From assembly GCF_022429625.1 (NCBI RefSeq), contig NZ_CP092483.1, positions 2,542,001 through 2,606,000 of the forward strand: a stretch of DNA of 64,000 bases, read 5' to 3'. The position numbers were made by a program, and so were the translations under genes. Numbering within the stretch: position 1 is the first letter of the stretch; the number at the start of each line of letters is the position of its first letter. Origin of the DNA: Devosia lacusdianchii (lineage in GTDB: Bacteria; Pseudomonadota; Alphaproteobacteria; Rhizobiales; Devosiaceae). This document shows, piece after piece, positions 4,919 through 28,490 of the stretch. The notes beneath the pieces are model-generated. The model did no database searches. It saw nothing but the letters and a program-made list of their open reading frames with translations, and was not told where the DNA came from.

Positions 4919-5539
4919 TCAGTCGGCCGCAGCCGGTGGCAACTGGCTGCGGTCGGCATAGACATGGTCGACCAGTCCCCAGGCCTTGGCCTGTTCCGGG
5001 CTCATGAAGTTGTCGCGCTCCAGCGCGGCCTCCACTTCCTCAATGGTCCGTCCGCAATGCTTGGCATAGAGGCTATTCGTCAGGCGCTTAAGCCTTTGGC
5101 TCTCCTGGGCGTGCAACACGATATCGGTGACCTGGCCCTGATAGCCGCCGCTCGGCTGGTGCAGCATGATTGAGGCGCTCGGCAGGCAAACGCGGCTGCC
5201 GGCCTCCCCGGCCATCAGCAGCAGCGTGGCCGCTGACATGGCCATGCCGAAGCAAAGCGTGCCGACCGGTGCCTTGATGAATTGCATGGTGTCATACATC
5301 GCCAGCGCCGATGTCACCACACCACCGGGCGAGTTGATATAGAGCGAGATTTCCTTCTGGGGGTTCTCGGCCTCCAAAAACAGCAACTGGGCGCAGACCA
5401 GCGAAGCCATACTGTCCTCTATTTGGCCGTTTATGAAGATAATCCGCTCCCGCAGCAGCCGCGAATAGATATCGAAGGAGCGTTCCCCCCGGCTCGATTG
5501 TTCGACGACCATAGGGACGAGCTGCATCATGTCGCGCAT
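4919..5539 (-). CDS. clpP: ClpP-family serine protease (paralogue)
   Basis: A 206-residue ClpP-type peptidase. A catalytic triad is readable: Ser102 in GMAMSAA, His127 in [11 protein letters not shown] and probable Asp176 in ERDNFMS. INSPGG matches the oxyanion-loop region. In canonical ClpP the nucleophile motif is G-x-A-A-S-M-G; here it is GMAMSAA, a divergent form. The gene is not followed by clpX or lon, so it is probably a second ClpP rather than the main one. A strong AAGGAG lies 8 nt before the ATG. As a family, ClpP needs an AAA+ partner for protein substrates; none is encoded nearby. Confidence 0.85.
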
Positions 5540-24146: not shown

Positions 24147-25811
24147 TTACTTCGACTTGCCTGCCGGCACGATCGCTATCTCGCTGCGTTCGCCACCGAC
24201 GATGGTGATCGGGGTTTCCTGATCAAGACTGATGATCAGGTAGTCCCCGGCAGCCAGCGTCGTACTGAAGTCCGGCCCGTAGCCATAGTCGAAGGATTTG
24301 CGGTTACCGGCAATATCGGCCTTGGCCGAGACCAGCTCCACATAGTCGTCACCCGGCGTGGTGACCGCGAGAACGCCTGCGTCGAGAATAACCGGAACGT
24401 CCGTCAGTTCACCCGTCTTGACGGTGAACGGCACCTCCCCCGATGCACCGCCCAGGTCATATGTCGCAACATAGTCACCGGGCGGCAGTTCGAAGCTGAG
24501 GTCGCCGCCATACTGGTAGGCGACCGACTTCCGCGAACCATCCAGCGCCTTCTTGGCCTCCAGAACCTCGATGAATATGTCGGCCTCGATGGGGCTGCCT
24601 TCGACGTAGAACGAGGCGACCTTGGCCAGGCCCACACCAACGATCACGTCCTCGTCGATGGTCTCGCCGGCCTTGGCGTCATAGGTGCGGGTCACCTTGG
24701 CCTCGCCAATCGAAACGTCGACCTCAATGGCGCCAGCCGGCACGACGACGTCGATATCGCCATATTGCGTGGTCACGTACTCGTTCGCGTGGCGGATTTC
24801 GGTCGCCGCGTCGTCATCCACCGGAGCGCCTTCGCTTGGCATGGGATGCAGCTTGAGGATGGTGCCGTTGATGACGAAGTGCGGCGTCGCGACCTTGCCA
24901 GCCACGATGGTCACCGGCTGCGACGAGGTCGCGTAGCCCAGCGTGGCGCTCAATATGTAGTCGCCCGGCTCCAGTGCGCCCTCAAAGGTCGAGTAGTAGT
25001 TCGTGCCGACATATTCGCCCGCCGTGCCATCGGCAGCGACGGTGTGCCATTCCCAAACCAGATCGGCATCCTCGTCGACAATGTCCGGACCGCCTTCGGA
25101 CAACGAAGCCGTGGGCTTAAGGTTGTAGTCGGCAACAGGCTCGGGCGCCGGGGCCGGCTCGGGTTCTGGTTCAGGTTCGACCTGCGCGACCTCGGCAACC
25201 GTCGAGCTCAGCGCATCGACCAGGGCTGCTCCGTCATTGGCCGGCAGATACTTGCCGCCGGTGTTTTCGGCGAGGCAGGCAACCTGTTGGCCCTCTTCGT
25301 CGGAAAGGCCAAAGCCCAGCACGTGGGTGGTGAAATCCACACCTTGAGATTCAAGCTCGGAGGCCAGGGCGCACGGATCGACCTCGCAGGTTTCGAGCCC
25401 ATCGGTAATCAGGATGACCGTCGCTTTTTCCTCGGTGAAGCGCAGATCTTCCGCGGCTAGCCGCACTGCGTCCGAAATTGGCGTCATGCCCTTGGGATTG
25501 ATCGCGTCGGCGGCGGCGACAATCGCCGAGCCGGTGCCCGTTGCCGGCTCAACCAGCATTTCGATATCGGCGCAATTGCCCTTTTCGCGGTGCCCATAGG
25601 TCATGAAACCCAGCTCAAGATCATCCGGCAGAGTAGCCAGCACCGAGGCCAGGGTTTCGCGCGCAATGGTGATGCGCGCCTTGCCATCGATCTGAGCCCA
25701 CATCGAGCCAGACCCATCAAGCACGATAATGGCGCGTTCGGCGGCAACCGCCGGCAGCGCCATGCCCAGGGCTGCGACCGCCCCAAGCACAAGATTACGG
25801 ATGATCCGCAT
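24147..25811 (-). CDS. Secreted VWA-domain protein with C-terminal repeats
   Basis: A 554-residue exported protein: signal peptide 1-24, then a von Willebrand A domain (about 25-205) with an intact metal site, DGSGS at 32-36 and Asp137 in LITDG. A Pro/Glu-rich linker spans 211-226. The C-terminal half has three beta-domains that share a GDY turn (EPGDYIL 282-287, PPGDYV 443-448, AAGDYL 520-525); the last two also share xGxRKS (424-429 and 501-506). The pattern suggests a periplasmic or surface binding protein; the ligand is unknown. GGAGGG lies 7 nt before ATG 25811, which decides the start. Confidence 0.82.
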   Translation of the reverse strand: MRIIRNLVLGAVAALGMALPAVAAERAIIVLDGSGSMWAQIDGKARITIARETLASVLATLPDDLELGFMTYGHREKGNCADIEMLVEPATGTGSAIVAAADAINPKGMTPISDAVRLAAEDLRFTEEKATVILITDGLETCEVDPCALASELESQGVDFTTHVLGFGLSDEEGQQVACLAENTGGKYLPANDGAALVDALSSTVAEVAQVEPEPEPEPAPAPEPVADYNLKPTASLSEGGPDIVDEDADLVWEWHTVAADGTAGEYVGTNYYSTFEGALEPGDYILSATLGYATSSQPVTIVAGKVATPHFVINGTILKLHPMPSEGAPVDDDAATEIRHANEYVTTQYGDIDVVVPAGAIEVDVSIGEAKVTRTYDAKAGETIDEDVIVGVGLAKVASFYVEGSPIEADIFIEVLEAKKALDGSRKSVAYQYGGDLSFELPPGDYVATYDLGGASGEVPFTVKTGELTDVPVILDAGVLAVTTPGDDYVELVSAKADIAGNRKSFDYGYGPDFSTTLAAGDYLIISLDQETPITIVGGERSEIAIVPAGKSK

Positions 25812-26016: not shown

Positions 26017-26439
26017 ATGGCGCCGATCGTGGAACTGTTGGGAGCGCGCTATGGCGACCTCCCCAAAATGCGGCAACTCGCCGGGCTTTCGCTCCAATTG
26101 GAGGTGATCGGGGACCAGAGCTATGTGTCGCTGCCCGAGGCCGGAATTTCGTTGGTATTGCCTGATGGCGTCATGGTGTCAGCGGTGCAGGTCCACGGGA
26201 GTACGTCAGGTTTCAGCCAGTTCGCTGGGGAGTTGCCCCATGGCATAGACTTCTCAATGGGACGCGAACACGCTCGCGCGCTTCTTGGCGACCCGGACAG
26301 CGAGGGTGAAGCACGGAACCTTCCTCTGCTCGGGTTGAAACCAGCATGGGACAGCTTCCTGATGGACGGCTATCGGCTGCACCTCGAGTACACGATCGAC
26401 ACAACTAGCATCCAGCTCGTTTCAATCATGCCAAGGTAG
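26017..26439 (+). CDS. Orphan protein, possibly immunity-like
   Basis: A 140-residue soluble protein with no signal peptide or membrane segment. I do not recognise it securely. A segment with MGREHARALLGDP, LPLLGLKPAWDSFLMDGYRLHLEY and a final strand recalls bacteriocin-immunity-like families such as DUF6392, where a helix of the same type precedes a G-x-x-x-x-W/Y loop. That is a weak resemblance. ATG 26017 has GAGG 12 nt upstream, which is long; a start at 25897 would add 40 residues. It lies between the VWA gene and a decayed ABC transporter, a neighbourhood that looks remodelled. Confidence 0.5.
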   Translation: MAPIVELLGARYGDLPKMRQLAGLSLQLEVIGDQSYVSLPEAGISLVLPDGVMVSAVQVHGSTSGFSQFAGELPHGIDFSMGREHARALLGDPDSEGEARNLPLLGLKPAWDSFLMDGYRLHLEYTIDTTSIQLVSIMPR

Positions 26440-26443
26440 GCCG

Positions 26444-27114
26444 CTATTCGGCCCCGGTCTGGCGCCAGCGCATTAGTCCGATGAAGAACAATCCGCCGAT
26501 AATGCCGGTCAGTATTCCGATGGGCATATCCTGCGGTGGAATCAGGATACGCGTAACAATGGCGGCTAGAACGAGGAAGATGGCGCCAACCAGCGCCGAT
26601 AGCGGGAGCACCCGTCGGTAGTCGCCGCCGACGGCGCGTTGCGGCGACGCTTCAAAGGTAACACCGCGGTTACAGCTCTGGACCGGGACGCGATAGCCGG
26701 CGGCCAGGGCCGTGCTGGTAGCGGTCGCGGCCAAGGCAATGGCGGAGACACGATGCGGCGTCAGCCCAAGTTCGACGATCTCGGCGACACTGAGCCCGAA
26801 ATCCGACGCCTGCTCCTGCAGAACCGTGGCAACGCGCCGCGCCACCGATTTGCCGACAGCGTCCAGATGTCGTCGCCGTCCAGAAGCACGAGACCGCTGC
26901 TGGGCCGGTGATAGCGATAGAGGCAGCGCAGCAGGCTCGATTTGCCTGCTCCATTCGGGCCGACCAACGCCAGCATCTCCCCTGGCTCGACGCTGAGCGA
27001 CAGCGGCCCGATAATGGGCTACCCCGGGATCGCACCCCAGGTCAGGCCCTTGATGTCGAGGCGCGCCGGCCGATCACCGGTGAAGCCATCAGCCGTAGAC
27101 TTGCCGTGTGCCAT
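26444..27114 (-). pseudogene. Decayed ABC importer (ATPase fused to permease remnant)
   Basis: Read on the minus strand from ATG 27114, an ABC ATPase begins (LDIKGLTWGAIPG) and hits an in-frame TAG at 27021-27019 after 31 codons. The same frame then continues with PGEMLALVGPNGAGKSSLLR (Walker A) and LLDGDDIWTLSA. Near 26870 the match shifts frame to ARRVATVLQEQASDFGLSV and EIVELGLTPHR. The C-half of the ATPase (signature and Walker B) is missing. Instead the frame runs into the C-terminal end of a FecCD-type permease: VGGDYRRVLPLSALVGAIFL, then TGIIGGLFFIGLMRW to TGA at 26444. At least one nonsense change, one frameshift and one deletion make it inactive. A cobalamin riboswitch lies upstream. 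Confidence 0.85.
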
Positions 27115-27229
27115 CGCTGGCTCCGCCGTATGGCGAGAGGTCACGGGCGATCCGAGCAGCGATTATGCGACAGCAACTGGTCATCATCGTCTCCCGCGGC
27201 ACACCTCGGCCGGGTTAAAAGGAATGATG

Positions 27230-27415
27230 ACGGCAAGTCTCCTGGCTTGCGGGTCGCTGCGGCTCCGGCCCTTCCCAGCCTTTCGGCCAGTGGTTCATCC
27301 CGGTGTCGCTATCCGCTCACAGTTGCGGGGGCAGCCACGGTATTGCGCCCTGATGGGTACGTCGCACCGTGTTCCCTTTTAATCCCGCCGCCCGAGTTGG
27401 GTGGCAAGAACCATC
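27230..27415 (-). promoter_or_regulatory. Cobalamin (B12) riboswitch
   Basis: On the minus strand the conserved aptamer elements appear in order: AAAAGGGAACACGGTGCG (about 27362-27380), GGCTGCCCCCGCAACTGTGA (27317-27336), CCACTGGCCGAAAGGCTGGG (27274-27294 region) and the B12 box GCCAGGAGACTTGCC (27232-27246). These match the cobalamin riboswitch consensus closely, including the P1 partner near 27400-27415. It would lower expression of downstream genes when adenosylcobalamin is plentiful. The downstream target is the pseudogene above, so the switch now appears to lack a working gene. Confidence 0.92.
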
Positions 27416-27506
27416 GGCGTGCGTGATGCGCGATTTTCGTCGGCAAGGCAAGGCGCCTCATTTCAACCCAAATGGCGCTGGAGCCTTCATTGGCTCGGAG
27501 GGAATC

Positions 27507-28490
27507 ATGAGGCGTTGGCTGGGACGGACGCTGCTGGCATTGCTGGTGCTGGCGGCAGGGATTTACGTGTTCAACGCGAGCTGGCGGGTATCTCCGCCAA
27601 GCGATCCCCAGATCACGCTGATCGCGCATCGCGGCGTCCACCAGACCTTCGACCGCAGCGGGCTCGAAAACGACACCTGCACGGCCGAGCGCATCGGTCC
27701 GCCGGAGCACGGCTTCATCGAGAACACGATTCCCTCCATGCAAGCTGCCTTTGCCGCAGGCGCTGATATCGTCGAGCTCGACGTGCACTCGACCACCGAT
27801 GGCCAGCTCGCCGTGCTGCATGACTGGACCATCGATTGCCGCACCGAAGGAACAGGCGAAACCCGCAGCCACGAGATGGCCTATCTCAAGTCGCTCGACG
27901 TCGGCTACGGCTACACCGCCGATGGTGGCGCCAGCTACCCGTTGCGCGGCACCGGCGTGGGGCAGATTCCCGAACTGAAGGAAGTGCTGTCGGCGATGCC
28001 TGACGGACGCTTCCTGATCAACTTCAAGAGCCGCGAGGCGCGCGAGGGCGACATGCTGGCCAGGGTGCTCAGCGACAATCCGGAGTGGCGTCAGGCAGTG
28101 TGGGGCGCCTATGGCGGCGACGAACCGACCTATCGCGCCGCAAACCAGATCGATGGGCTCGCTGTCTGGTCACGGCGCGGGCTGGTCGACTGCCTCGTGC
28201 AATATGGCGGGCTTGGCTGGACGGGTTACATGCCGCAGGCCTGTCGCAACACCAAGGTGATGGTGCCGCTCAACGTGGCGCCCTGGCTGTGGGGTTGGCC
28301 CAACCTGTTCCTCGAACGCATGCGCAACGCCGGCAGCGAGGTGATCCTGCTCGGGCCATACGAGTCAGGCGATCCCGGCGCCGCCGGCATCGATACGGTG
28401 GAACAGCTGGCGCAACTGCCCACTAGTTTCGATGGCTACCTGTGGACCAACAAGATTGAGATCATCGCCCCGGTGCTGACCGCGCAATAG
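27507..28490 (+). CDS. Glycerophosphodiester phosphodiesterase
   Basis: A 327-residue GDPD-family enzyme with an N-terminal membrane anchor or signal (LGRTLLALLVLAAGIYVF). Catalytic motifs are present: IAHRGVH, IENTIPSMQAAFAAGAD, VELDVHSTTDGQLAVLHD. It hydrolyses glycerophosphodiesters to glycerol-3-phosphate and an alcohol; the anchor places it outside the cytoplasmic membrane. A long insertion after the HRG motif (QTFDRSGLENDTCTAERI) is not in the short enzymes. ATG 27507 is preceded by CGGAGGGAATC, deciding the start. It is divergent from the riboswitch. Confidence 0.88.
   Translation: MRRWLGRTLLALLVLAAGIYVFNASWRVSPPSDPQITLIAHRGVHQTFDRSGLENDTCTAERIGPPEHGFIENTIPSMQAAFAAGADIVELDVHSTTDGQLAVLHDWTIDCRTEGTGETRSHEMAYLKSLDVGYGYTADGGASYPLRGTGVGQIPELKEVLSAMPDGRFLINFKSREAREGDMLARVLSDNPEWRQAVWGAYGGDEPTYRAANQIDGLAVWSRRGLVDCLVQYGGLGWTGYMPQACRNTKVMVPLNVAPWLWGWPNLFLERMRNAGSEVILLGPYESGDPGAAGIDTVEQLAQLPTSFDGYLWTNKIEIIAPVLTAQ

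What the first reader, a model, noticed from the sequence alone, without database searches (positions are those of the whole stretch)
27230..27415. Well-preserved cobalamin riboswitch with no intact gene downstream
All the key aptamer elements are in place on the minus strand (AAAAGGGAACACGGTG, GGCTGCCCCCGCAACT, CCACTGG...CTGGGAAGG, GCCAGGAGACTTGCC). The only reading frame it could control is the decayed importer at 26444-27114. Either the importer died recently, or the switch has another job, such as controlling a short RNA, or influencing the divergent glycerophosphodiesterase gene.
Basis: partly seen in the sequence, partly recalled or inferred. Interest (0 to 1): 0.7.

Follow-up and report, generated by a model that had tools for sequence, protein, structure and literature searches.

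The report
Orphaned B12 switch beside dead importer
A bacterium that belongs to the genus Devosia still carries the RNA switch that once controlled a presumed vitamin B12 importer, although the importer genes were recently destroyed by deletions and the switch itself has begun to change; it is a well-dated case of ordinary gene loss, not a new kind of regulator.

Summary
The RNA is real: a full-length cobalamin riboswitch aptamer (RF00174, 120.6 bits, E 1.1e-29) at 27215-27430(-). Its operon is dead. I found the orthologous switch in 22 relatives among 75 genomes of the genus; in 19 of 22 it precedes three open importer genes (btuD-, btuF-, btuC-like). In the window an in-frame stop, a 1-base deletion and two large deletions (475 nt, about 1.7 kb) leave btuD's front, a scrap of btuF and btuC's tail. 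Codon-position pattern says the loss is recent. A second riboswitch-linked importer and three more cobalamin riboswitches remain.

"Well preserved" holds for the aptamer. In relatives this hairpin covers the ribosome-binding site of a short leader ORF that usually overlaps btuD: a possible relay, the most interesting by-product.

No evidence supports a second job: no terminator-like site to gate a small RNA, and the RNA points away from the glycerophosphodiesterase gene. Best reading: recently orphaned riboswitch, possibly already impaired.

The parts
27215..27430 (-). cobalamin riboswitch aptamer, full length
   Evidence: RF00174 120.6 bits, E 1.1e-29, model 1-189
27324..27333 (-). L5 loop region TGCCCCCGCA of the aptamer, intact
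   Evidence: invariant in the 19-row alignment
27232..27247 (-). B12 box; 27236 is T where all 18 aligned orthologs have C (by the Rfam structure line a G-C pair becomes G-U)
27193..27214 (-). P13 hairpin (expression platform); loop CGAGGTGT at 27201-27208 with G>A at 27206
   Evidence: 20-nt core exact in 21 relatives beside an RF00174 match; a 22nd, G068, keeps loop CGGGG with a compensating stem change
27089..27187 (-). leader ORF (32 codons here); start and ribosome-binding site kept, middle shifted by an 8-nt and a 1-nt deletion
   Evidence: open, 33-37 codons, in 17 of the 18 relatives (G018 runs into btuC)
26751..27114 (-). btuD-like remnant (front part of the ATPase); in-frame TAG at 27021-27019, 1-nt deletion near 26855, then a 475-nt deletion
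26630..26739 (-). btuF-like remnant (front scrap of the substrate-binding protein)
   Evidence: blastn to G015/G010; protein match 59% over residues 7-52
26444..26633 (-). btuC-like remnant (rear part of the permease) after a deletion of about 1.7 kb
   Evidence: PF01032 positions 254-310, E 1.1e-14; blastn
26017..26439 (+). convergent ORF of 140 aa, inserted relative to the five relatives aligned
   Evidence: two homologs (46-48%) labelled PF19929 in a precomputed table, but hmmscan finds no Pfam family at E<=1
27507..28490 (+). divergent glycerophosphodiester phosphodiesterase-like gene
   Evidence: PF03009 E 2.2e-18

Best explanation
This is the cobalamin riboswitch of a BtuD-BtuF-BtuC-type importer operon that was destroyed recently in this lineage. 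In intact relatives the switch probably works at translation: bound corrinoid lets aptamer loop L5 pair with loop L13, which stabilises the P13 hairpin and hides the ribosome-binding site of a leader ORF; without corrinoid the leader ORF is translated, and ribosomes crossing it open a second hairpin over btuD's own ribosome-binding site. In the window the importer is gone, the leader ORF is scrambled, and one base of the kissing loop and one of the B12 box have changed. The RNA may still be made and may still bind corrinoid, but it has nothing evident to control and is probably drifting towards loss. Shown: RNA family, operon orthology, the lesions, the sequence changes, the second importer's open genes. 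Inferred: substrate of the importer, binding, switching, transcription and the leader-ORF relay.
For: Family match. Orthologous switch in 22 other genomes of the genus, 19 of 22 with all three importer frames open. Two large deletions, stop and frameshift in the window. Private changes in the btuD remnant fall 2:2:8 by codon position, like 3:3:13 for G015, G010, G075 and G094 together (Fisher p = 1). L13 loop CGGGG kept in 22 of 22 relatives (21 exact; G068) but CGAGG here; predicted L5-L13 duplex weakens from -9.2 to -2.3 kcal/mol. A second importer with its own riboswitch has open ATPase, permease and binding-protein genes at 2945.7-2949.5 kb, and CbtA/CobN/cobA-type adenosyltransferase, metE and class I nrdA genes follow the other riboswitches. 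G018 lost the same genes by a different deletion of about 2.3 kb and also kept the switch.
Against: The window breaks only 2 of 130 otherwise invariant columns; the 18 aligned orthologs break 0 to 5, so the amount of change in the RNA is not beyond that of working copies. The excess of private changes in aptamer core plus linker over the btuD remnant is borderline (p = 0.055) and vanishes when seven changes clustered at indels are dropped (p = 0.37). G029, left out of the codon comparison, shows 5:1:3, so counts this small are noisy. The kissing-loop pair hit corresponds, by my alignment, to the least important of three functional pairs in another riboswitch, and env8HyCbl has a natural mismatch (PMC10653944, passages). 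For the isolated hairpin of the nearest relatives the predicted minimum-energy fold is another pairing than P13. No minus-strand promoter-like site was found upstream. The G015 genes scanned do not reach a curated BtuC or BtuD cut-off.
Confidence: 0.9

Rival explanations
1. The orphaned switch has been co-opted: its transcript runs through the remnant and is antisense to the inserted convergent ORF 26017-26439, or acts as a B12-responsive small RNA.
For: The inserted ORF ends 4 nt from the btuC remnant's stop, on the other strand, and no minus-strand terminator-like site lies between aptamer and 25853. Antisense-acting cobalamin riboswitches exist (Listeria pocR; 190 predicted in a table of PMC9943018, passages).
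Against: The platform looks translational, so RNA level should hardly depend on corrinoid; the kissing loop is changed; the insertion is absent from the five relatives aligned. PMC9943018 proposes that riboswitches antisense to pseudogenes are fortuitous.
Confidence: 0.05
2. The switch now drives the next minus-strand gene, the VWA-domain gene at 24147-25811, by read-through.
For: In G015, G010, G075 and G094 that gene lies about 120 nt behind btuC on the same strand.
Against: A gene on the other strand has been inserted between; the VWA gene keeps its own conserved upstream stretch; the switch's hairpin lies 1.4 kb away from its start; G029 has no such frame behind btuC.
Confidence: 0.03
3. 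The importer is intact and the lesions are assembly errors.
For: A 1-nt frameshift alone could be a sequencing error, as may be the case for G010 btuC.
Against: Deletions of 475 nt and about 1.7 kb, an insertion and an in-frame stop in a single 4.36-Mb contig; no other close btuF in the genome, best full-length match 44%.
Confidence: 0.02
4. The switch influences the divergent glycerophosphodiesterase gene.
For: Only 76 nt separate the aptamer's 5' end from that gene's start, and G015 and G010 share the neighbourhood.
Against: The RNA is transcribed away from that gene; the 12-kb G029 locus has the switch but no blastn match to the gene.
Confidence: 0.01

Closest known systems
Cobalamin riboswitch RF00174 with L5-L13 kissing loop and RBS-hiding hairpin (E. 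coli btuB type, as described in PMC10653944 passages)
   Same: full aptamer, B12 box, CCCCCG L5 loop, P13 hairpin with a complementary loop next to a ribosome-binding site
   Different: the site belongs to a leader ORF rather than directly to btuD; in the window the L13 loop is changed and the operon is dead
ppe2 B12 riboswitch with translated uORF, Mycobacterium tuberculosis (PMC11260477, passages)
   Same: a riboswitch-gated leader ORF overlaps the start of the regulated gene
   Different: there stop and start codons overlap tightly and translation was shown; here the ORF runs 20-32 nt into btuD in another frame in 15 of 17 relatives and translation is unproven
Antisense-acting cobalamin riboswitch of Listeria pocR (PMC9943018, passages)
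   Same: riboswitch whose transcript could run into a convergent gene
   Different: no known link between the inserted gene and B12; not seen in the five relatives aligned

Membership tests
RF00174 cobalamin riboswitch | covariance-model score over the curated threshold, full length | tested here: met
   120.6 bits against 31.5, positions 1-189
RF00174 cobalamin riboswitch | conserved B12 box | tested here: met
   present at 27232-27247 with one change, C>T at 27236
RF00174 cobalamin riboswitch | L5-L13 kissing loop | tested here: inconclusive
   L5 intact; L13 CGGGG has become CGAGG; predicted duplex -9.2 to -2.3 kcal/mol
RF00174 cobalamin riboswitch | lies 5' of an intact B12-related gene (use, not family) | tested here: not met
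   operon destroyed here, open in 19 of 22 relatives
RF00174 cobalamin riboswitch | binds corrinoid and switches expression | not testable with these tools
   needs in-line probing and reporter fusions
BtuCDF vitamin B12 importer (relatives' operon) | domains of the type II importer: ABC ATPase, FecCD permease, Peripla_BP_2 binding protein | tested here: met
   remnants match PF00005 and PF01032; relative G075's binding protein matches PF01497
BtuCDF vitamin B12 importer (relatives' operon) | curated NCBIfam cut-off for BtuC or BtuD | tested here: not met
   G015: BtuC 220.9 bits against 334, BtuD 127.1 against 281; so 'BtuDFC-type', substrate inferred from the riboswitch
riboswitch-gated uORF (as in M. 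tuberculosis ppe2) | leader ORF with its own ribosome site under the switch, overlapping the gene start | tested here: met
   in relatives: ORF in 17 of 18 loci; overlap in 15 of 17
riboswitch-gated uORF (as in M. tuberculosis ppe2) | leader ORF is translated | tested here: inconclusive
   pN/pS 1.27, 0.50, 0.84 and 0.33 in four clades
antisense-acting riboswitch | corrinoid-dependent transcript opposite a functionally linked gene | not testable with these tools
   no expression data; no terminator-like site

The most novel reading that the evidence does not exclude
The orphaned switch is still used: it gates a new small product or a B12-responsive antisense RNA against the gene that was inserted right behind the dead importer, so that a riboswitch was re-purposed after its operon died.
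Probability: 0.04. Interest if true: 0.7.

Novelty: new member of a known kind. Interest (0 to 1): 0.27.

Why it matters
It is a clean, datable example of a riboswitch outliving its genes, with open operons in 19 relatives as reference and a second loss by a different deletion in G018. That allows a test of how fast switch parts decay once selection stops. The comparison also exposed a leader-ORF arrangement between riboswitch and btuD in these importer operons that, if translated, would be a further setting for riboswitch-uORF interplay, described so far (in the papers I saw) for mycobacteria.

Tried and rejected
Rejected: control of the divergent gene (RNA points away); assembly error (large multiple lesions); read-through control of the VWA gene; transcriptional attenuation (no minus-strand terminator-like site between aptamer and 25853). 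A rate excess in the switch on the window branch was tried and is not claimed: p = 0.055, and 0.37 after dropping seven changes clustered beside indels (G029 left out of both sums). Conservation of the leader peptide by pN/pS is inconclusive. The hairpin over btuD's ribosome site is predicted in the 15 overlapping relatives, but only 7 of 15 have z below -2 against mononucleotide shuffles, and over all 17 z runs from -4.2 to +0.5. A loose search for a GGGG-loop hairpin behind 35 distinct riboswitches of the loci then held found it in 22, so this platform is not general. MAFFT placed the inserted stretch behind 26443 badly against btuC; blastn boundaries were used instead. G001 has a btuC-like frame without a B12-box-like motif in the 10 kb looked at and was not pursued. 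Literature searches 'riboswitch, pseudogene, orphan riboswitch, cobalamin', 'Devosia, cobalamin, riboswitch', 'cobalamin riboswitch, pseudogene, gene loss, remnant' and 'B12 riboswitch, uORF, translational coupling' showed nothing on this locus in the rows listed (15 of 67, 1 of 1, 10 of 434, 10 of 30); subscription papers are mostly not held.

Full report
OBSERVATION. An Rfam scan of the window finds one RNA over threshold: RF00174 Cobalamin at 27215-27430 on the minus strand, 120.6 bits (threshold 31.5), E 1.1e-29, full model. This is far beyond chance. Of 19 orthologous copies scanned (window plus 18 relatives), scores run from 118.0 to 134.4 bits; the window is the second lowest.

SETTING. 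The window lies in a single-contig genome of 4,355,240 bases. Its genus is taken to be Devosia because relative G015, of the same genus by the tool's label, has a contig of the same length (434,274) as a record titled Devosia ginsengisoli MAG. The genome has five RF00174 matches. The other four stand before (a) a stretch with CbtA, CobN and a cob(I)yrinic acid adenosyltransferase over their curated cut-offs; (b) an importer with open binding-protein (PF01497), permease (PF01032) and ATPase (PF00005) genes; (c) B12-independent methionine synthase metE (1155 bits, cut-off 541); (d) a ribonucleotide reductase alpha subunit (NF005544, 1673 bits, cut-off 965). So this bacterium seems able to make corrinoid and to import it by another route.

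DEAD OPERON. Relatives carry riboswitch - btuD - btuF - btuC (type names: in G015 BtuC scores 220.9 bits against a cut-off of 334 and BtuD 127.1 against 281, so the substrate is inferred from the switch). In the window the btuD frame starts at 27114, meets TAG at 27021-27019, loses one base near 26855 and breaks off at 26751, where 475 nt are missing; 26739-26630 is the start of btuF; another deletion of about 1.7 kb leads to the tail of btuC, ending at 26444. Behind it a convergent ORF (26017-26439, plus strand) is inserted relative to the five relatives aligned. A search of the genome with G075's binding protein finds this scrap (59% over residues 7-52) and three further matches at 44%, 31% and 27%.

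RELATIVES. The genus searches covered 75 genomes including this one. I fetched 18 orthologous loci, 3 more and, on rechecking, G068: 22 in all. Twenty-one are all the genomes with the exact 20-nt P13 core beside an RF00174 match; G068 has a variant core. More diverged orthologs may exist, the match list being cut. Of the 22, 19 have all three frames open (16, G080 and G090, G068). G010 has a 1-nt frameshift in btuC. G085, an 84%-complete genome, has btuF split between frames. G018 has lost btuD, btuF and the front of btuC through a deletion of about 2.3 kb and keeps the switch at 132.3 bits. So the operon has been grossly deleted twice, with different endpoints and the switch left behind.

TIMING. 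In the alignment with G015, G010, G075, G094 and G029, changes private to the window in the btuD remnant before the frameshift fall 2, 2 and 8 on codon positions 1, 2 and 3 (85 sites each); G015, G010, G075 and G094 together show 3, 3 and 13 (Fisher p = 1). G029, not in that sum, shows 5, 1 and 3. The remnant thus still bears the mark of selection for protein, so the loss is probably recent relative to the split from relatives about 80% identical. The counts are small.

STATE OF THE SWITCH. Against 18 aligned orthologs the window breaks 2 of 130 otherwise invariant columns: 27236 C>T in the B12 box and 27206 G>A in the loop of P13. Orthologs break 0 to 5 (G016 5, G066 4, G018 2), so the number is not unusual; the places are. 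Of the four relatives outside that alignment, G080, G090 and G068 have the C in the B12 box; G085 was not caught by the pattern. The P13 core AACCCGGCCGGGGTGTGCCG is exact in 21 relatives; G068 has CCTGGC-CGGGGTGA-GCCAAGG, the same loop with a C-G to T-A change in the stem. Nine further inexact matches in the genus were found; for 8 of them the positions rule out an RF00174 match beside them, and for G095:C48 the cut list leaves it open. The loop CGGGG can pair with CCCCG of aptamer loop L5, the kissing loop known from other corrinoid riboswitches (PMC10653944, passages). The predicted duplex drops from -9.2 to -2.3 kcal/mol. Folded alone, the hairpin stretch of the nearest relatives prefers another pairing (-9.8), while the window's version and that of the second relative type fold as drawn (-8.8). 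In the cited paper the third pair, by my alignment the one hit here, mattered less than the first two, and env8HyCbl has a natural mismatch; so impairment is likely, loss of function not shown. A general rate excess in the switch is not established (p = 0.055; 0.37 after removing clustered changes).

HOW THE INTACT SWITCH PROBABLY WORKS. The 3' arm of P13 runs into a purine-rich site a few nt before an ATG. From that ATG a leader ORF of 33-37 codons is open in 17 of the 18 relatives (in G018 it runs on into btuC) and in the 3. In 15 of 17 it overlaps btuD's start by 20-32 nt, each time with the same frame offset and a start-to-start distance of 79 or 82 nt; in G027 and G036 it ends 141 nt before btuD. 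The btuD ribosome-binding site is predicted to be paired (3-4 of 4 bases) in those 15, though only 7 of 15 folds have z below -2. This suggests a relay: corrinoid closes P13 and silences the leader ORF; without corrinoid, ribosomes on the leader ORF open the btuD site. A riboswitch-gated leader ORF needed for the downstream gene is known for M. tuberculosis ppe2 (PMC11260477, passages). Coding conservation of the leader ORF is inconclusive (pN/pS 1.27, 0.50, 0.84, 0.33 in four clades). In the window the ORF keeps start and ribosome site but its middle is shifted by 8-nt and 1-nt deletions.

OTHER JOBS. No terminator-like site lies on the minus strand between the aptamer and 25853, and no minus-strand promoter-like site was found either, so even transcription is inferred. 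Antisense-acting riboswitches exist, and that survey proposes that those opposite pseudogenes are fortuitous (PMC9943018, passages). The inserted convergent ORF makes antisense control conceivable but nothing supports it.

VERDICT. A genuine cobalamin riboswitch, recently orphaned by destruction of its importer operon, with a first change in its expression platform. Ordinary in kind, useful as a dated example; the leader-ORF relay in the intact relatives is the part worth testing.

Noticed in passing
27089-27187 (-) and counterparts in L036-L045, L139-L145, L180-L182: A leader ORF (33-37 codons in relatives, 32 here) sits between the B12 riboswitch and btuD, its ribosome site beside the P13 hairpin, overlapping btuD out of frame in 15 of 17 loci tested.
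   Followed up: partly
L046 (G018), riboswitch at 5103-5317: Separate orphaning: a deletion of about 2.3 kb joins the leader to the rear half of btuC, with the leader ORF running in frame into it.
   Followed up: partly
26017-26439 (+): Inserted convergent ORF of 140 aa with two other homologs found (46-48% identity); precomputed label PF19929 is not confirmed by hmmscan.
   Followed up: partly
L049 7212-7364 (-) and 8108-8298 (+): Two divergent cobalamin riboswitches 0.7 kb apart in the same genome, one before a ribonucleotide reductase alpha gene, one before metE; the former scores only 76.9 bits.
   Followed up: no
G029:C1:2636478-2636691 (-): A second riboswitch in G029 is 90% identical over about 155 nt to the window's aptamer, suggesting a duplicated or moved switch.
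   Followed up: no
L037 (G010) btuC: One-base frameshift in a run of G in an otherwise open btuC of a single-contig genome: early decay or sequencing error.
   Followed up: no
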